A model generated the notes under the pieces. It saw only the letters and a list, made by a program, of their open reading frames with translations, searched no databases and was not told where the DNA came from. DNA of 64,000 nt, from IMG/VR virus record IMGVR_UViG_3300025151_000017, positions 1 to 64,000 of that record, one strand, 5' to 3'. A program made the translations under genes and the position numbers. The stretch is from a virus. Shown here piece by piece: positions 56,641 through 63,527 of the stretch (the stretch's first letter is position 1; each line of letters starts with the position of its first letter).

Positions 56641-58029
56641 ATGCGTATTGAAGAAACTATACTTTCCAATCTATTTCAAAATGATGAGTTTACTCGTAAA
56701 GCAATCCCCTTTATTAAAGGTGAGTATTTTTCTGAGCGAGGTGAACGAATTATATTTGAAGAGTTTGAAAAACTTTTCATGCAATATAATAATGTTCCTA
56801 GTCCTGAGATGATTGCTAATGAAGTCTTTGCTCGTAAAGATTTATTTGAAGACGAACATAAAAACATGCAAGAGATGCTTGAGGATATAAAAGATATCCA
56901 GGCAGTAAATGAAAACTGGTTGTATGATAAAGCTGAAGAGTGGTGTAAAGAACGAGCAGTACATAATACTATTATGGACTCTATCAAGATTATTGATGGT
57001 AGAGATAAAAATCGTGACAAGGGTGCGATTCCTAAAATGATGCAGGATGCTCTTGGTGTATGTTTTGATAATAGTGTTGGTCATGATTATCTTGAAGATT
57101 CTGATGACAGGTATGAATACTATCACAAGGTTGAAGAAAAGATTAAGTTTGATATTGATTTATTGAATACCATTACTCGTGGTGGCTTGAGTAAAAAAAC
57201 TCTTAACATAGCTATGGCTGGTACAGGTGTTGGTAAATCTTTGTTTATGTGTCATCATGCTTCATCAGTTTTGGCTGAAGGTATGAATGTTCTTTATATT
57301 ACTATGGAGATGGCTGAAGAAAAAATCTCTGAAAGGATTGATGCTAACTTATTGAACTTGGGTATGGACGAAATTAAAGTTGTCGACCATGATATCTTTA
57401 GTAAAAGAATTAACAAAATTAAAGACCATAATAATGGTAAGCTAATTGTAAAAGAGTATCCGACAGGTGGTGCCCATGCTGGGCACTTCCGTGCTTTACT
57501 TGAAGAACTAAAAGTAAAAAAAGGATTTACACCTGATATTATTTTTATTGATTATCTAAACATCTGTGCTTCTCAAAGATTGAGGATGGGTGCAAATGTG
57601 AATACATATTCATATATTAAATCTATTGCTGAAGAACTAAGAGGATTGGCAGTTGAATATAACTGTCCTATCGTATCAGCAACTCAAACTACCAGAGGTG
57701 GATATAATAATACTGATGTCGGACTTGAAGATACTTCTGAAAGTTTTGGTTTACCAGCAACTGCTGATTTAATGTTTGCGATTATTGCTAGTGAAGAACT
57801 AGATAACATGGGACAGTGGATGATTAAGCAGTTGAAAAACAGATACTCCGATCCAAACTATTACAAAAGGTTTGTAGTTGGTGTTGATAAAAACAAGATG
57901 AGACTGTATAATGTAGAAGCATCTGCTCAGACTAATATCATGGACTCTGGTCAGGATAATGATATCGGAGCAGTGTTTGATAAAAGTGAAGCAGGTGAAC
58001 GATTAAATATGGAAGGGTTTAAGGTATGA
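56641..58029 (+). CDS. 41: Replicative helicase gp41 (DnaB-like)
   Basis: 462 residues (T4 gp41 is 475). The N-terminal ~150 residues are the helical DnaB-type collar. Walker A MAGTGVGKSLFMCHH (near residue 190-200), Walker B DIIFIDYLNICAS, and the C-terminal SATQTTRGGYN segment define the RecA-like hexameric helicase that moves 5' to 3' on the lagging strand with primase gp61 (not in this window). ATGA overlap with the next gene. Confidence 0.95.
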   Translation: MRIEETILSNLFQNDEFTRKAIPFIKGEYFSERGERIIFEEFEKLFMQYNNVPSPEMIANEVFARKDLFEDEHKNMQEMLEDIKDIQAVNENWLYDKAEEWCKERAVHNTIMDSIKIIDGRDKNRDKGAIPKMMQDALGVCFDNSVGHDYLEDSDDRYEYYHKVEEKIKFDIDLLNTITRGGLSKKTLNIAMAGTGVGKSLFMCHHASSVLAEGMNVLYITMEMAEEKISERIDANLLNLGMDEIKVVDHDIFSKRINKIKDHNNGKLIVKEYPTGGAHAGHFRALLEELKVKKGFTPDIIFIDYLNICASQRLRMGANVNTYSYIKSIAEELRGLAVEYNCPIVSATQTTRGGYNNTDVGLEDTSESFGLPATADLMFAIIASEELDNMGQWMIKQLKNRYSDPNYYKRFVVGVDKNKMRLYNVEASAQTNIMDSGQDNDIGAVFDKSEAGERLNMEGFKV

Positions 58030-59327
58030 CAAAAATAATAACTGCACCTAAAAAATTCGACTGTGAAGATAAACTTGGTTTTTTTGGTGATGAAAAAGAT
58101 TACGAATTACTAGTTGATTGGGATTGTGATTTTTATGCTCCTACACCTATGGGTGAAGAAAACAGTGAAGCTAACATTATCTTCAAGTTTCGTAAAAATT
58201 GGTTTACTCAAGAACAACAAGACGAAGCATATGCAGGTTTGCGTGAAGCAGCAGGTGCCACAGAGAATCGTGGTCTGGCAGCAGGTACTGAAAAAACAGT
58301 TGCTCTAGGAAGTAGAGATTGGGTCACTAATTATCATAATGCTTTACTACAATACTTTATGTCTCCATCAGCTACACTTGATGGCTCGGATCCTGTAGAA
58401 GCTATACGACAAGAATATAAAGGCAGGGAAAAGATTGCTGATGACAGTCGTGGTAAAGTATGGTTGGCACAAAAAGTTGCTGAAGAAGATTTCGTATTTG
58501 AAAACTGGGTTGAAGAAGTAAGAGTATTGCCACGAGATGAAATGATTGCTGAAGCAACAAGAGTAAATGATAAACTAACATCTACAACTTCTTATGCTAA
58601 CTCAGTGTTCTCTGGTATCGCAGGATACTTTGATAGATATCCTCGTATTCCTTTTGGTCGTCCTACCACTTATACTAGGGATAATTATGATAAGTTTGAG
58701 AGAGCATTCCCTTTCCTACAAAGATTATCAAATGGTTTTGAAGAACTGTTGCCTGTAAGACATGGTAAACAGATGGATGCTTGTAATAAACTAGATCCTA
58801 AATTTGTTATTCCTGGCACTGTTTTTACTACTGCTACTGTGAATAAAACTTTTAGAACAGCTTATCACAGAGATGCTGGTGATTTAAATGAAGGATTCTC
58901 TAATCTTACAGTCGTATCTAATAATGGTAAATACTCAGGTGGGTATCTAATACTTCCTGAATATAAAGTGGCTGTGAATATCCGTCCTGGAGATTTGCTA
59001 TTGATTAACAATCACGATGGTATTCATGGTAATACACCAATGGTACTAGAAGATGAAGAAGCTGAAAGAATATCTTTTGTATGTTATTTCAGAGAAAAAA
59101 TGTTAGAACTTGGCTCTTGGGATTACGAACAAACTAGAGAAGAATATGTCACTGCTCGTAGAACTAATAAAGAACACCCTTTACAAAGACCACTATGGAA
59201 TGGTATTAGTCCTGGCATGTGGGATGAAAAAGAGTGGTATGATTTTCTTGAAAACAAATTAGGAACTGATGTATTGGTACAGTATCATCCTGACAGTCAA
59301 GCCAGTTCCCTGGAGAGTTTCTTTTAA
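58026..59327 (+). CDS. 2OG-Fe(II) dioxygenase of the JBP/TET type (putative DNA base hydroxylase)
   Basis: 433 residues, ATGA overlap with gp41. The double-stranded beta-helix core lies at ~260-360: the Fe ligands His281 and Asp283 in AYHRDAGD, the strand pair GKYSGGYLILPEYKVAVNIRP, the distal ligand His334 in DGIHGNTP, and Arg348 as the likely 2-oxoglutarate partner. The spacing and the YSGG..LPE...N.RPGD pattern are those of the JBP/TET branch, which hydroxylates thymine or 5-methylcytosine in DNA. The C-terminal SLESFF resembles a clamp-binding tail, which would bring it to the replication fork (inference). A plain prolyl-hydroxylase-like enzyme is the alternative. Confidence 0.72.
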   Translation: MTKIITAPKKFDCEDKLGFFGDEKDYELLVDWDCDFYAPTPMGEENSEANIIFKFRKNWFTQEQQDEAYAGLREAAGATENRGLAAGTEKTVALGSRDWVTNYHNALLQYFMSPSATLDGSDPVEAIRQEYKGREKIADDSRGKVWLAQKVAEEDFVFENWVEEVRVLPRDEMIAEATRVNDKLTSTTSYANSVFSGIAGYFDRYPRIPFGRPTTYTRDNYDKFERAFPFLQRLSNGFEELLPVRHGKQMDACNKLDPKFVIPGTVFTTATVNKTFRTAYHRDAGDLNEGFSNLTVVSNNGKYSGGYLILPEYKVAVNIRPGDLLLINNHDGIHGNTPMVLEDEEAERISFVCYFREKMLELGSWDYEQTREEYVTARRTNKEHPLQRPLWNGISPGMWDEKEWYDFLENKLGTDVLVQYHPDSQASSLESFF

Positions 59328-60058
59328 TGGATTATAGATTATTTAAAAATACTTATGTTCGTGAGATAGATGGTAAAGCATTACAAGTCGATAAAGATAT
59401 GGTAAATGACTGTCTAGCTCATTACTCACAGTTTGACGATCTTGAGGATGCCATAGTTATGGACTGGGGTGCCAACATTGGTGGCTTCGGAAGAATGTTA
59501 ATGGACAAACCAATAAAAAGATATATTGGTGTAGAGTGTCATCCTGAAAACTTTGAGGTGATGGAAAAGAATCTAGGGGACGACCTGAGATTTGCTTTAA
59601 TAGAAGCAGCAGTGACTAATCAAGATGCTGGTAATATAGATTTATATATGACAGGCAGTAAACAAGAGTTCTGTTCAGGCACAACTAATCCTAAAAGTAA
59701 TGCTGCGAAAAATATGAGAAAAAAGAAAGTTTCTGTGGCAACTGTAAATGGGTATAGATTACTTGAAAAATATAAACCTACACATTTAAAATGCGATATC
59801 GAAGGAGAAGAATATCGTATGTTCGACCCAGACTGGCTCATACCTGATTCTGTAAAACAATTATCATTAGAGTTTCATTGGGCAGATAGAATACTGTCAG
59901 ACTATGAAAGTACAGTTAGAGAGTCTCTCATCAGGCAAGGATTTACACCTGTACAAGAAAAACTTAATTATGTCAAAGGGGATAAAAGAGTTATGTTCTT
60001 AGGTGAAGATATTTCTTACCGAAATGTATGGGGATTGGATACACTGTACAAACGATGA
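59327..60058 (+). CDS. FkbM-family SAM methyltransferase
   Basis: 243 residues, starting one base inside the previous stop. Motif I is VMDWGANIGGFGRML (residues ~44-58), the acidic residue of motif II is in YIGVECHPENFEV, and LKCDIEGEEY (~150-160) is the FkbM signature. FkbM enzymes usually O-methylate sugars or other hydroxyls. Embedded between a putative base hydroxylase and an amino-acid:DNA-transferase-like gene, it may decorate the modified base, but a surface-glycan target is also possible. Confidence 0.75.
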   Translation: MDYRLFKNTYVREIDGKALQVDKDMVNDCLAHYSQFDDLEDAIVMDWGANIGGFGRMLMDKPIKRYIGVECHPENFEVMEKNLGDDLRFALIEAAVTNQDAGNIDLYMTGSKQEFCSGTTNPKSNAAKNMRKKKVSVATVNGYRLLEKYKPTHLKCDIEGEEYRMFDPDWLIPDSVKQLSLEFHWADRILSDYESTVRESLIRQGFTPVQEKLNYVKGDKRVMFLGEDISYRNVWGLDTLYKR

Positions 60059-61200
60059 AATATCTACACCCAGATAATATAGATAAACCTTACAAAGATT
60101 GGAGACTCCCTGAGAACAGGGTACAGATGTGTCTTCGGTCATATGCTTGGCGAATGAAACATCGTGATGTTGACCATTACACTTATAATGAAGCATACAT
60201 GACACGAGGTGCTATGACTGATGAGCAGAGGATTTATTTTTCCATGCTGTTTGGTATCACATACCAATCATCAATGGCTTGGGTTATCTGGTCACACTTT
60301 CCTGATATAGAAAAAATAAACTGGGAATATCTAGAAGAATGGAATAATGAAAATTATGCCAGACAACATTTTGCTAAAGACACAAAATATAACAAGGGAA
60401 AGTTTATCCCTATCCTAAAAGATATTCACGAAAAAGTCTTACAACAATATGGCTCTCTTAGAGCATGGTTAGATACCTTTCAAGATTTCGACCATGCCTT
60501 AGAAGAGGTTATGTCAATTTATAGAATAGGTCGTATGTCTGGTTGGTTGACAACTCAAGCATTTTATGAGTTATGTGATGGGATGCGTCATATAAAACCA
60601 GAGAGTATGTTAGCGACAGATCCTTCTAATTGGTCAGTAAGATCTGGACTGGTTTACATTTATAATAAACCAGAACTGATGGACTTAGATAGCAAAACCA
60701 AGTACAGCAGTGATGATATAAAATGGATTGAAAGAAAAGAACAAGAATTTATAGAGAGTTGTAATGAGCATGTGAGTGATTATTTTAATAGTCCATTTAC
60801 AATGGAAACCCACCTATGTCAATATAAGAAAATGATTAAGACTGGTGGCGATGCTCCTGGGACTCCAACTCAAGATGCTTACACTCGTTGGTACAAATTA
60901 AAACAGGCATGGTCAGAGTTAGATTGGGATTTTTTTGAAGATGTATCAAAGCATGCTGCACCTTGTGTACAGAAAACATTTCAGAATAAGATCCTAATGA
61001 AAACAGGTGCCATGACAGGTCAAATGATTAACATGCATGACGATAATGATGACTTGCCTAATATGTACAAAGAGTTTGGTATAGAACAATCATGGCTTAC
61101 TGACTTTGATGATTATACCAGACTAGAAATAAAGAATAATTTTAATAATTACTTGACAAAGATGTCAGGAGAAAAAGTCGGTCTAGAGGTTTACTTTTAA
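60055..61200 (+). CDS. Amino-acid:DNA transferase-like protein (aGPT-Pplase2 type)
   Basis: 381 residues from ATG 60055 (ATGA overlap). The helical segment MTDEQRIYFSMLFGITYQSS continuing into MAWVIWSHFPDI, then YRIGRMSGWLTTQAFYEL and FTMETHLCQYKKMIKT, resembles the alpha-glutamyl/putrescinyl-thymidine pyrophosphorylase clade, helical DNA-glycosylase-like proteins that replace the pyrophosphate of phosphorylated 5-hydroxymethyluridine in DNA with a nucleophile. A kinase matching the preceding step lies at 62955. The call is by motif memory, without a search. The final TTTACTTTTAA carries the next promoter. Confidence 0.6.
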   Translation: MKYLHPDNIDKPYKDWRLPENRVQMCLRSYAWRMKHRDVDHYTYNEAYMTRGAMTDEQRIYFSMLFGITYQSSMAWVIWSHFPDIEKINWEYLEEWNNENYARQHFAKDTKYNKGKFIPILKDIHEKVLQQYGSLRAWLDTFQDFDHALEEVMSIYRIGRMSGWLTTQAFYELCDGMRHIKPESMLATDPSNWSVRSGLVYIYNKPELMDLDSKTKYSSDDIKWIERKEQEFIESCNEHVSDYFNSPFTMETHLCQYKKMIKTGGDAPGTPTQDAYTRWYKLKQAWSELDWDFFEDVSKHAAPCVQKTFQNKILMKTGAMTGQMINMHDDNDDLPNMYKEFGIEQSWLTDFDDYTRLEIKNNFNNYLTKMSGEKVGLEVYF

Positions 61201-61218
61201 GAAATTCTAATATAGAAT
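61190..61218 (+). promoter_or_regulatory. TTTACT-17-TAGAAT promoter for inositol-phosphate synthase
   Basis: TTTACT (61190-61195) lies in the last codons of the upstream gene (VYF-stop); 17 bases; TAGAAT (61213-61218). Expected start near 61225, giving a leader of about 74 bases. Confidence 0.75.
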
Positions 61219-61236
61219 TCTTATATATATGTTGAT

Positions 61237-61270
61237 AGTGTGCTACTCTGATCCAGTCAAATATCACACT
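61237..61270 (+). other. Leader hairpin before inositol-phosphate synthase
   Basis: AGTGTG (61237-61242) pairs with CACACT (61265-61270) around a 22-base loop in the 5' leader. Stem is short; a regulatory role is only possible. Confidence 0.35.
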
Positions 61271-61298
61271 CTAATAAACTGATATAAAGGAGAAATAT

Positions 61299-62582
61299 AT
61301 GTCAAAAATAAATGTCGCCATTATTGGTGTCGGTAATTGTGCCAAGTCTTTAGTAGAGGGTGTACAATACTATATTCAAAATCCCGAAGATAAAGTTGGT
61401 TTAATGTATCCAGATATTGGAGGATACACTGTAAATGATATCGAGTTCGTTTGTGGCTTCGATATTGACCCACGAAAAGTCGGAACTCACTTAATTAATG
61501 CATTACGATCCAGACCTAACTGTGCTATGGACCATGTCGACTCGCTAGATTTTACTTGTGTAAATTCTCTAGCAGAAGTTTATTCAGGTCCAGTACTAGA
61601 TGGTGTTGCTGACCACATGCTTGATTATCCAGAAGAAATATCATTTAGAACAGGTGCAGATACTGCCCTATCTAAAAAACAAGTTGCTGAAAAACTTAAC
61701 TTTCATAAAGTAGATGTGGTAATTAATTATTTACCAGTTGGTTCTGAGAAAGCTACAGAGTTCTATATGGCAGCATGTCTAGAAGCTGGTTGTCATTTCG
61801 TAAACTGTATTCCTACATTAATCGAAACTAACAAATCTAAATTAGTAGAGCAATCATTTATTGATAAAGGACTTACTATTGTTGGTTCTGATATGAGATC
61901 TGCTTGGGGTGCTTCTAGATTATCTGAGGTATTACAAGGAGCAATGATAGACTCTGGTTTACAAGTGACGCAACATATTCAAATGAATATGGCAGCAGGG
62001 TCTACACAAGGTCAAGAAAATATTCGTACAGGTAGAACAGCAAATACTGACTTCTTAAATATGGCTTACAAAGAAAGATTACATAGTAAGCATGTATCTA
62101 AGGAGAATGTTTTGAAAGGTCAAAATGTTGTTAGGGAAGAACCAACAGCTGGTATGACTTTATATGCTGGACCAAGTCTTACAGTATTTCAAAAACCAGG
62201 AGGGGATTATGTTGGCTCCGATAATAAAATTGCCAACCTAGATATTGTTGCTTATGGTTTTGGTGGGGCAAGGTATGAAATGTCAGCTAGACTTTCAGTA
62301 CAAGATTCGCCAAACTCAGGAGGAGTGGTGGTATCGGCTATTCGTTTCTGTAAGGTTGCTTCTGAGATGGGTATAGTTGGTTTCCTAAGAGGTCCAAGTG
62401 CTTGGACACAAAAGACACCTCCTGTACAATTAAAAACTGAGGATGCTAAGTTTGAATGTGACGCACTTGCTCGCAGAGAACTTACTAAAATGACAGAGCC
62501 ACAGTTAAAGAAAAATAATCCTAAAGCATTAGACTTGCCTTATACATATCAAGCTGGTCATACTGATTATGAAAACAATTAA
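61299..62582 (+). CDS. ino1: myo-Inositol-1-phosphate synthase
   Basis: 427 residues. The Rossmann start VAIIGVGNCAKSLVEGVQYY, the FDIDPRKVG segment, INYLPVGSEKAT, GSDMRSAWGASRL and VQDSPNSGGVV are those of bacterial/archaeal MIPS, which converts glucose-6-phosphate to inositol phosphate with NAD. Length is normal. It has its own strong promoter and AAGGAG site. A HAD phosphatase overlaps its 3' end by 14 bases and could release free inositol. It lies between two putative DNA-modification genes, which suggests inositol or its phosphate may feed a base modification or a phage glycolipid step (inference). Confidence 0.9.
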   Translation: MSKINVAIIGVGNCAKSLVEGVQYYIQNPEDKVGLMYPDIGGYTVNDIEFVCGFDIDPRKVGTHLINALRSRPNCAMDHVDSLDFTCVNSLAEVYSGPVLDGVADHMLDYPEEISFRTGADTALSKKQVAEKLNFHKVDVVINYLPVGSEKATEFYMAACLEAGCHFVNCIPTLIETNKSKLVEQSFIDKGLTIVGSDMRSAWGASRLSEVLQGAMIDSGLQVTQHIQMNMAAGSTQGQENIRTGRTANTDFLNMAYKERLHSKHVSKENVLKGQNVVREEPTAGMTLYAGPSLTVFQKPGGDYVGSDNKIANLDIVAYGFGGARYEMSARLSVQDSPNSGGVVVSAIRFCKVASEMGIVGFLRGPSAWTQKTPPVQLKTEDAKFECDALARRELTKMTEPQLKKNNPKALDLPYTYQAGHTDYENN

Positions 62583-62958
62583 CACATTTGATATCGATGG
62601 TGTCATCTTTATGGGTGATTACAATGGAGTGTATCCGAGTAAGGATGACATCATCATCACAGGTAGATCTATTGAAGAGTGGGATGAAACTTCTGCTATG
62701 CTAAAATCAAAAGGTATAGACAACGAAGTGTTTATGAACCCAACAAACTTTGCTCAAAAAACTAGGGAAGGATCTGGGGTACATAAAGCAACCATAATTA
62801 AATGGCTTGAACAAGATAGAGGAGTAAAAGTTGGAATACATTTTGAAGACGATCCTATACAAATCAGAGAAATATCTAAAAGATGTCCTGAGGTAAAAAT
62901 TGTTCATCTTGTACATACATTGGTAGAAAAAGAAAATAAAAGGAGACCATTCAAATGA
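62569..62958 (+). CDS. HAD-superfamily phosphatase-like protein
   Basis: 129 residues, ATG inside the end of the inositol-phosphate synthase gene. Motif I TFDIDGVIFMGD (residues 6-17) has the nucleophile Asp and general-acid Asp; motif II ITGRS (Thr/Gly/Arg); motif IV FEDDPIQI. A Lys in HKATIIKWL could be the motif III residue. Likely a small phosphatase. Candidates for substrate are inositol phosphate, or a nucleotide 3'-phosphate as in polynucleotide kinase-phosphatase. Four-base overlap with the kinase gene. Confidence 0.7.
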   Translation: MKTINTFDIDGVIFMGDYNGVYPSKDDIIITGRSIEEWDETSAMLKSKGIDNEVFMNPTNFAQKTREGSGVHKATIIKWLEQDRGVKVGIHFEDDPIQIREISKRCPEVKIVHLVHTLVEKENKRRPFK

Positions 62959-63527
62959 TTATTGCGATAGGTGGAGAACCAGCTACTGGTAAATCTACAT
63001 TAATGAAACAGTGGATGAAACCATATAAGTGGGAAGATGTAAAACTTACTGACTTGCTATATGGTATGTGGTGTAAAGACCTGAATACGATTGTTCTCGG
63101 AAAAGATTATTTCGATGAGAGCCAGATGTTTTCAGGTACTGATAGACTATCAATGGCAGTACAACCCAAAGCAATAGAGTGGATGAGGGACTCATACAAG
63201 CCATCTGGAGTGAATATAGTGTTTGAGGGAGATAGGTTATTTACTGCTTCTTTCCTATCTGAGATCGTCGCTATGGGGCACGATTTAGAGTGTATTTACA
63301 TAAAAGCAGACCAAAGTATCCTAGATGAAAGACATGTCTCTAGGAAGGATAATCAGGACGACAAGTTCCTAAATTCAAGGAAAACGAAGCTATCTAACAT
63401 ATTATCTAACTTTGAACTCATGCCTTTTATTACCGAGTTCCCTAATAATAATGAAGATGACCAGCTGTTATTGGTCAACCATCTTCTAGGAAAGTTAGAT
63501 ATTGGCACGATAGTTTTCGAAAACTAA
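62955..63527 (+). CDS. P-loop kinase, 5-hydroxymethyluridine DNA kinase-like
   Basis: 190 residues, ATGA overlap. Walker A GGEPATGKST (6-15). The blocks LGKDYFDESQMFSGTDRLSM, AVQPKAIEW and VFEGDRLFTASF (89-100) match the pattern I know for phage 5-hmdU DNA kinases, which phosphorylate hydroxymethyluracil in DNA as the first step of thymidine hypermodification. A general polynucleotide or adenylate-type kinase is the alternative. Together with the dioxygenase at 58026 and the transferase-like protein at 60055 it completes a plausible path. Confidence 0.68.
   Translation: MIIAIGGEPATGKSTLMKQWMKPYKWEDVKLTDLLYGMWCKDLNTIVLGKDYFDESQMFSGTDRLSMAVQPKAIEWMRDSYKPSGVNIVFEGDRLFTASFLSEIVAMGHDLECIYIKADQSILDERHVSRKDNQDDKFLNSRKTKLSNILSNFELMPFITEFPNNNEDDQLLLVNHLLGKLDIGTIVFEN

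What the first reader, a model, noticed from the sequence alone, without database searches (positions are those of the whole stretch)
58026..63527. Putative DNA base hypermodification cluster built on in-DNA oxidation
Six co-oriented, mostly overlapping genes encode a JBP/TET-like dioxygenase, an FkbM methyltransferase, an amino-acid:DNA-transferase-like helical protein, inositol-phosphate synthase, a HAD phosphatase and a 5-hmdU-DNA-kinase-like P-loop protein. Known thymidine hypermodification starts from hydroxymethyl-dUMP made before replication; here a dioxygenase could make hydroxymethyluracil directly in DNA, then kinase and transferase would act. This combination, tied to gp41, looks like a distinct pathway.
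Basis: partly seen in the sequence, partly recalled or inferred. Interest (0 to 1): 0.92.

Follow-up and report, generated by a model that had tools for sequence, protein, structure and literature searches.

The report
Phage cassette decorating oxidised DNA bases
A marine T4-like virus carries six linked genes that probably oxidise thymine in its finished DNA, activate it with a phosphate and attach a group, possibly a sugar-like inositol; this differs from known routes that build the altered base before DNA is copied.

Summary
Six co-oriented genes directly follow the gp41 helicase gene: a TET/JBP dioxygenase, an FkbM methyltransferase, an ADDT-type (amino acid:DNA transferase) helical enzyme, myo-inositol-phosphate synthase (MIPS), a small HAD phosphatase and a P-loop kinase related to 5-hmdU DNA kinases. 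The ADDT assignment was the weakest; homologues hit the family, and its AlphaFold model matches the 5-PmdU glycinyltransferase best.

No thymidylate-synthase/hydroxymethylase family gene and no C5-cytosine methyltransferase occurs in this record, 15 related TET+ records, or complete phages DLP6, C48C1 and S-CBWM1. A distant TET clade has a C5-methyltransferase in 58 of 58 loci; this clade has none in 83.

New here: TET sits at a cassette hot spot with swappable modules. The kinase accompanies ADDT in 21 of 21 loci. MIPS and HAD form a portable pair (74 of 75 loci) found beside DNA-modification genes in all 62 testable loci, in three different chemical contexts. I infer an inositol-type decoration.

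The general scheme (TET/JBP plus transferase plus kinase) has been proposed before; the inositol module was not found in the literature searched. No chemistry was tested.

The parts
56641..58029 (+). gp41-type replicative helicase; upstream neighbour, overlaps the TET gene by 4 bp; conserved anchor of the cassette site
   Evidence: sequence; cluster 1 lies near TET, median 1.4 kb upstream, in 77 of 92 loci
58026..59327 (+). TET/JBP-family 2-oxoglutarate/Fe(II) dioxygenase (433 aa); H281-x-D283, H334, R348; predicted to hydroxylate thymine 5-methyl in DNA
   Evidence: PF12851 E=9.6e-20; catalytic residues invariant; AlphaFold model matches TET2, NgTet1 and CcTet at E 1e-8 to 1e-11
59327..60058 (+). 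FkbM-family SAM methyltransferase (243 aa); predicted O-methylation of the payload
   Evidence: PF05050 E=8e-7, above cut-off; FkbM also next to TET in Pelagibacter phage HTVC112P
60055..61200 (+). ADDT-type (amino acid:DNA transferase) helical protein, 381 aa from ATG 60055 (an upstream in-frame ATG at 60028 also exists); predicted to displace the activated phosphate and attach the payload
   Evidence: 19/21 homologues hit PF18724, best 1.3e-52; phiW-14 gp109 and M6 ORF51 hit the same family; model top PDB hits 8z2n/8z2m, 5-PmdU glycinyltransferase; ETxxCxxK motif
61299..62582 (+). myo-inositol-phosphate synthase (427 aa)
   Evidence: PF01658; 1GR0 E=3.2e-53; K/SK, DNK, DS-NS and K-PP motifs conserved among phage copies
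62569..62958 (+). small HAD-type phosphatase (129 aa, DxDGV); predicted inositol-phosphate phosphatase
   Evidence: phrog_415 E=2.8e-8; directly downstream of MIPS in 74 of 75 phage loci
62955..63527 (+). P-loop kinase, Ploopntkinase3 (190 aa, GEPATGKST); predicted to phosphorylate the hydroxymethyl group
   Evidence: PF18751 E=6.4e-9; profile match to phiW-14 gp37/M6 ORF54 hmdU kinases, prob 92%, E=6e-7, N-terminal 70 columns only; present in 21 of 21 loci with ADDT

Best explanation
The operon is a post-replicative DNA hypermodification cassette. Step 1 (inferred): the TET/JBP enzyme hydroxylates the 5-methyl of thymine in replicated DNA, giving 5-hydroxymethyluracil as trypanosome JBP does. 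Step 2 (inferred): the P-loop kinase phosphorylates the hydroxymethyl group. Step 3 (inferred): the ADDT-type enzyme displaces the phosphate with a nucleophile. Step 4 (inferred, least certain): the nucleophile, or a later addition, is a cyclitol. MIPS converts glucose-6-phosphate to inositol phosphate, the HAD enzyme removes the phosphate, and FkbM O-methylates the ring or the attached group. The product would be a bulky group on a fraction of thymines that blocks host nucleases. Rough probabilities: DNA hypermodification 0.9; thymine oxidised in DNA 0.7; kinase then transferase 0.75; inositol-type payload 0.45.
For: Family assignments for all six proteins and folds of TET and ADDT; the best ADDT fold match acts on 5-phosphomethyl-dU, a thymine-type substrate. 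No PF00303 hydroxymethylase/TS and no PF00145 C5-MTase in G000, in 15 TET+ IMG/VR records totalling about 1.07 Mb, or in complete DLP6, C48C1 and S-CBWM1. The phage and several relatives encode ThyX, which makes ordinary dTMP. Control clade: 58/58 Melnitz-type TET loci carry a C5-MTase against 0/83 window-clade loci. Modularity: ADDT and kinase co-occur in 21/21 loci; loci lacking ADDT lack the kinase in 13/14. Between the window and L015, TET is 91% and MIPS 85% identical but ADDT only 42%; L019/L027 keep TET (about 90%) and kinase (about 81%) but lack MIPS and HAD, with ADDT about 21%. MIPS-HAD: 74/75 adjacent; 62/62 testable loci have an ADDT, HMUDK_hel, C5-MTase, TET, TAGT or QueC gene nearby.
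Against: No activity or base composition is known. G000 is a linear 116.9-kb record, possibly incomplete, so absence there alone proves little. Cr30, the isolate sharing most of the cassette, encodes a PF00303 protein, probably its TS since it lacks ThyX, but not proven. The HxDxxD position does not distinguish this clade from the C5-MTase-linked one; from memory the same Asp in NgTet1 contacts 5mC, so residues do not favour thymine. The window ADDT copy has no Pfam hit of its own, and direct comparison with phiW-14/M6 proteins was not significant. Characterised ADDT enzymes transfer amino acids or amines, not inositol. Loci are related, so counts are not independent.
Confidence: 0.62

Rival explanations
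1. Cytosine route: the TET enzyme oxidises 5-methylcytosine made by a host or undetected methyltransferase, and the kinase and transferase act on hydroxymethylcytosine.
For: Phage TETs are usually described as acting on 5mC (PMC11404850); Melnitz-type phages pair TET with a C5-MTase and a related kinase; the HxDxxD residue is shared with that clade.
Against: No C5-MTase in G000, 15 relatives or four complete relatives and 0/83 loci; host methylation would give few sites; the ADDT fold matches a deoxyuridine-type enzyme.
Confidence: 0.17
2. The transferase attaches an amino acid or amine as in M6, ViI and phiW-14, and inositol is added to that group or serves another step.
For: All characterised ADDT members use amino acids or putrescine (memory; general scheme in PMC6449724); sister cassettes swap MIPS-HAD for amidotransferase, amidoligase and GNAT genes, which suit amino-acid payloads.
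Against: No amino-acid-tailoring enzyme in this operon; ADDT sequence diverges where MIPS is present versus absent.
Confidence: 0.25
3. MIPS, HAD and FkbM form an auxiliary metabolic or surface-glycan module that merely sits beside DNA-modification genes.
For: Inositol has metabolic uses; a Menderavirus paper treats MIPS as an acquired bacterial gene (PMC9025141).
Against: MIPS-HAD lies beside DNA-modification genes in 62/62 testable loci with three different core chemistries, including inside the 7-deazaguanine cluster of Menderavirus.
Confidence: 0.12
4. RNA rather than DNA is modified (tRNA or mRNA).
For: Some relatives are annotated as queuine tRNA-ribosyltransferase.
Against: That name looks like a misannotation, since those proteins match the TET protein by sequence; partners are DNA-transferase families; the operon is coupled to the replicative helicase gene.
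Confidence: 0.03

Closest known systems
Thymidine hypermodification of phages M6, ViI and phiW-14 (5hmdU, then 5hmdU DNA kinase, then amino-acid/amine transferase)
   Same: Kinase plus ADDT-type transferase acting after replication; phiW-14 gp109 and M6 ORF51 fall in the same Pfam family as the window protein's homologues
   Different: Those phages make hydroxymethyl-dUMP before replication (phiW-14: PMC5977210); here no hydroxymethylase family gene and instead a TET/JBP oxygenase; kinase is a sibling family (PF18751, not PF18748); MIPS, HAD and FkbM are extra
Rhodococcus phage Tonitrus putative thymidine hypermodification set (ParB, tet-like JBP, aGPT-Pplase2, 5-hmU DNA kinase) (PMC11955845)
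   Same: TET/JBP with transferase-family protein and hmU-kinase-like protein, side by side
   Different: Different transferase clade; no MIPS, HAD or FkbM named; function only inferred there too
Base J pathway of kinetoplastids (JBP1/2 then glucosyltransferase)
   Same: Thymine oxidised in DNA by a TET/JBP enzyme, then decorated; related phages carry a TET-associated glycosyltransferase (PF20691)
   Different: The window operon has kinase plus ADDT and no TAGT
Phage TET acting on 5mC made by phage C5-methyltransferase (Burke et al. 2021, from memory; Melnitz-type loci here)
   Same: TET family; some share the kinase
   Different: C5-MTase present in 58/58 such loci, absent here
7-deazaguanine cluster of Menderavirus (Stenotrophomonas phages Mendera, Ps15)
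   Same: Adjacent MIPS and HAD genes, 45-48% identical
   Different: Core chemistry is FolE/QueC/QueE; no TET found in Mendera and no ADDT match in the stretch read

Membership tests
TET/JBP dioxygenase | Family profile and HxD...H facial triad plus 2OG-binding Arg | tested here: met
   PF12851 E=9.6e-20; H281, D283, H334, R348 invariant; fold match to TET2/NgTet1
TET/JBP dioxygenase | Oxidises T or 5mC in DNA | not testable with these tools
   needs enzyme assay
ADDT (amino acid:DNA transferase, PF18724) | Sequence profile match | tested here: inconclusive
   window copy none; homologue L015, 42-45% identical, hits at 4.4e-20 and Cr30 at 1.3e-52
ADDT (amino acid:DNA transferase, PF18724) | Fold of 5-PmdU glycinyltransferase | tested here: met
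   top three PDB matches, prob 0.99-1.00 but E 0.05-0.12, target TM 0.49-0.55
5-hmdU DNA kinase (HMUDK, PF18748) | Profile match | tested here: not met
   hits sibling PF18751 Ploopntkinase3 instead; partial profile match to phiW-14/M6 kinases, prob 92%
Classical thymidine hypermodification pathway | dUMP hydroxymethylase (PF00303 family) | tested here: not met
   absent from G000 and 15 relatives; record may be incomplete
5mC-dependent phage TET pathway | Phage C5-cytosine methyltransferase | tested here: not met
   absent
Myo-inositol-phosphate synthase | Profile and catalytic Lys/Asp motifs | tested here: met
   PF01658 and 1GR0 E=3e-53; motifs conserved
Base J-type glycosylation | TET-associated glycosyltransferase | tested here: not met
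   no TAGT hit among the six operon proteins; rest of genome not searched for it

The most novel reading that the evidence does not exclude
Phages attach inositol, or O-methyl-inositol, to bases in their DNA. The MIPS-HAD pair is a portable payload module plugged into three different base chemistries: thymine oxidised in DNA by TET/JBP, a C5-MTase pathway with HMUDK_hel proteins, and 7-deazaguanine. In the window phage the hydroxymethyl group is made on thymine in finished DNA rather than at the nucleotide level.
Probability: 0.38. Interest if true: 0.88.

Novelty: new variant of a known kind. Interest (0 to 1): 0.72.

Why it matters
It gives a testable phage counterpart of the base J pathway and a distinct entry to thymidine hypermodification with no nucleotide-level hydroxymethylase. 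The MIPS-HAD association suggests a class of DNA decoration, cyclitols, that I did not find in the papers searched. The cassette site after gp41 in marine T4-like phages looks like a natural library of DNA-modifying enzymes with swappable transferases and payloads. It also predicts modified DNA in a cultivable phage, Caulobacter phage Cr30.

Tried and rejected
Single-sequence search of the TET protein against PDB found nothing; profile and fold searches did. Direct profile comparison of the ADDT family with phiW-14 gp109/M6 ORF51 was not significant. I looked for an active-site residue separating thymine- from 5mC-linked TET clades; the HxDxxD position does not. Literature searches for inositol with phage hypermodification gave nothing relevant. 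The key papers (Iyer 2013; Burke 2021; Lee 2022) are not held. The DLP6 paper tested 18 restriction enzymes, but the passages read do not state a clear digestion result, so it is not used. An earlier count of HAD next to MIPS (23 of 76) missed overlapping genes and was corrected. I considered RNA modification and rejected it. An attempt to read the Cr30 PF00303 protein from L010 returned the wrong frame, so its subtype was not examined.
Full report
Observation. The window is bases 1-64000 of a 116,941-base linear IMG/VR record of a T4-like phage. Six genes on the + strand follow the gp41 helicase gene with overlaps or short gaps.

Protein identities. TET/JBP: PF12851 E=1e-19, and an AlphaFold model (mean pLDDT 82) whose best PDB matches are human TET2, NgTet1 and CcTet. 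FkbM methyltransferase: PF05050. MIPS: M. tuberculosis Ino1 1GR0, E=3e-53, with catalytic motifs conserved among phage copies. HAD: DxDGV motif and phrog_415. Kinase: PF18751, P-loop GEPATGKST; its profile matches the phiW-14 gp37/M6 ORF54 kinases over the N-terminal 70 columns, while M6 ORF54 belongs to the sibling PF18748.

The helical protein was the least certain. Alone it hits nothing in Pfam. Of 21 aligned family members, 19 hit PF18724 ADDT, best 1.3e-52, and so do phiW-14 gp109 and M6 ORF51. Its own model (pLDDT 72) has as its top three PDB matches the 5-phosphomethyl-dU glycinyltransferase of a Pseudomonas phage, with OGG1-type glycosylases prominent among the next hits. The E-values are weak (0.05-0.12) but Foldseek probability is 0.99-1.00. 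This shows homology and fold, not activity.

Source of the hydroxymethyl group. PF00303 (thymidylate synthases and pyrimidine hydroxymethylases) is absent from G000, from 15 related TET+ records totalling about 1.07 Mb, and from complete DLP6, C48C1 and S-CBWM1. Cr30 has one, but no ThyX, so it is probably its thymidylate synthase. PF00145 C5-methyltransferase is absent from all of these and from Cr30. G000 and several relatives carry ThyX. A natural control is the Melnitz-type TET clade, 20-24% identical: all 58 loci with enough upstream sequence carry a C5-methyltransferase, against 0 of 83 window-clade loci. The simplest reading is that this clade's substrate is already in the DNA, namely thymine. 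This is inference; the HxDxxD residue is the same in both clades.

Modularity. Directly after gp41-TET, different phages carry different sets: FkbM-ADDT-MIPS-HAD-kinase (window); amidotransferase-amidoligase-GNAT(-ParB)-ADDT-kinase; TAGT glycosyltransferase-cytidylyltransferase-cupin; and an unidentified 334-aa/149-aa pair. In loci with at least 6.5 kb from the TET start to the locus end, all 21 with ADDT also carry the kinase; of 14 without ADDT only one does. This fits a kinase that activates the substrate of ADDT. Nearly identical TET genes sit beside very different ADDT genes (91% TET, 42% or about 21% ADDT), as expected if ADDT sets payload specificity.

The inositol module. MIPS relatives were fetched from 80 viral loci. 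HAD is directly downstream in 74 of 75. All 62 loci with at least 2 kb downstream contain an ADDT, HMUDK_hel (PF18723), C5-methyltransferase, TET, TAGT or QueC gene nearby. Three core chemistries are involved: TET/ADDT; HMUDK_hel with a divergent C5-methyltransferase and no detected PF12851; and the 7-deazaguanine cluster of Menderavirus, where MIPS lies between FolE and QueC and was described as an acquired bacterial gene (PMC9025141). The loci are related, so these are not independent counts, and the HMUDK_hel queries were picked from the same loci before Pfam named them. Even so, a pure metabolic role is hard to reconcile with this.

Mechanism proposed. T in DNA is oxidised to 5hmU (TET/JBP), then phosphorylated (kinase), then joined to a nucleophile (ADDT). 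MIPS and HAD supply inositol and FkbM O-methylates it or the attached group. Gene identities are shown; each reaction is inferred. The inositol acceptor step is the weakest, because characterised ADDT enzymes use amino acids or amines. An O-linked nucleophile has precedent in ViI 5-(2-aminoethoxy)methyl-dU (named in PMC6449724; its serine origin is from memory).

Novelty. Thymidine hypermodification through kinase and transferase is known (PMC6449724, PMC5977210). TET/JBP with transferase and kinase has been proposed for Tonitrus (PMC11955845) and, from memory, by Iyer et al. 2013. I did not find the MIPS-HAD module tied to DNA modification in the library searched, but key papers are not held. 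I therefore rate it a new variant of a known kind.

Noticed in passing
L227:8001-12872 (also L184, L191, L236, L238, L244): Marine T4-like cassette MIPS-HAD-HMUDK_hel(PF18723)-possible glycosyltransferase-divergent C5-MTase, with no PF12851 TET in records up to 116 kb; looks like a separate hypermodification pathway.
   Followed up: partly
L025:10001-12966: TET followed by TET-associated glycosyltransferase (PF20691, 1e-11), a cytidylyltransferase-like and a cupin gene: a possible phage base-J-like system.
   Followed up: partly
L006:11908-15352 (phage C48C1): TET followed by a 344-aa unknown and a UDP-galactopyranose mutase: possible galactofuranose decoration of DNA.
   Followed up: no
L095:11098-16621 (phage Mendera): MIPS and HAD embedded in a FolE/QueC/QueE 7-deazaguanine cluster.
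   Followed up: partly
L045:11296-12743: Relatives carry a 334-aa protein with no Pfam hit plus a 149-aa protein directly after TET, with no ADDT or kinase: unknown payload chemistry.
   Followed up: no
public annotations (DLP6, Cr30, S-CBWM1, actinobacteriophages): Relatives of the TET protein are named 'SNF2 DNA repair protein' or 'queuine tRNA-ribosyltransferase'; kinase relatives are named 'terminase small subunit' or 'adenylate kinase'. These look like misannotations.
   Followed up: partly
L096:810-3866, L097:645-2176: Mycobacterium and Microbacterium phages carry distant TET and kinase genes close together just upstream of the terminase gene; no C5-MTase in these genomes.
   Followed up: partly
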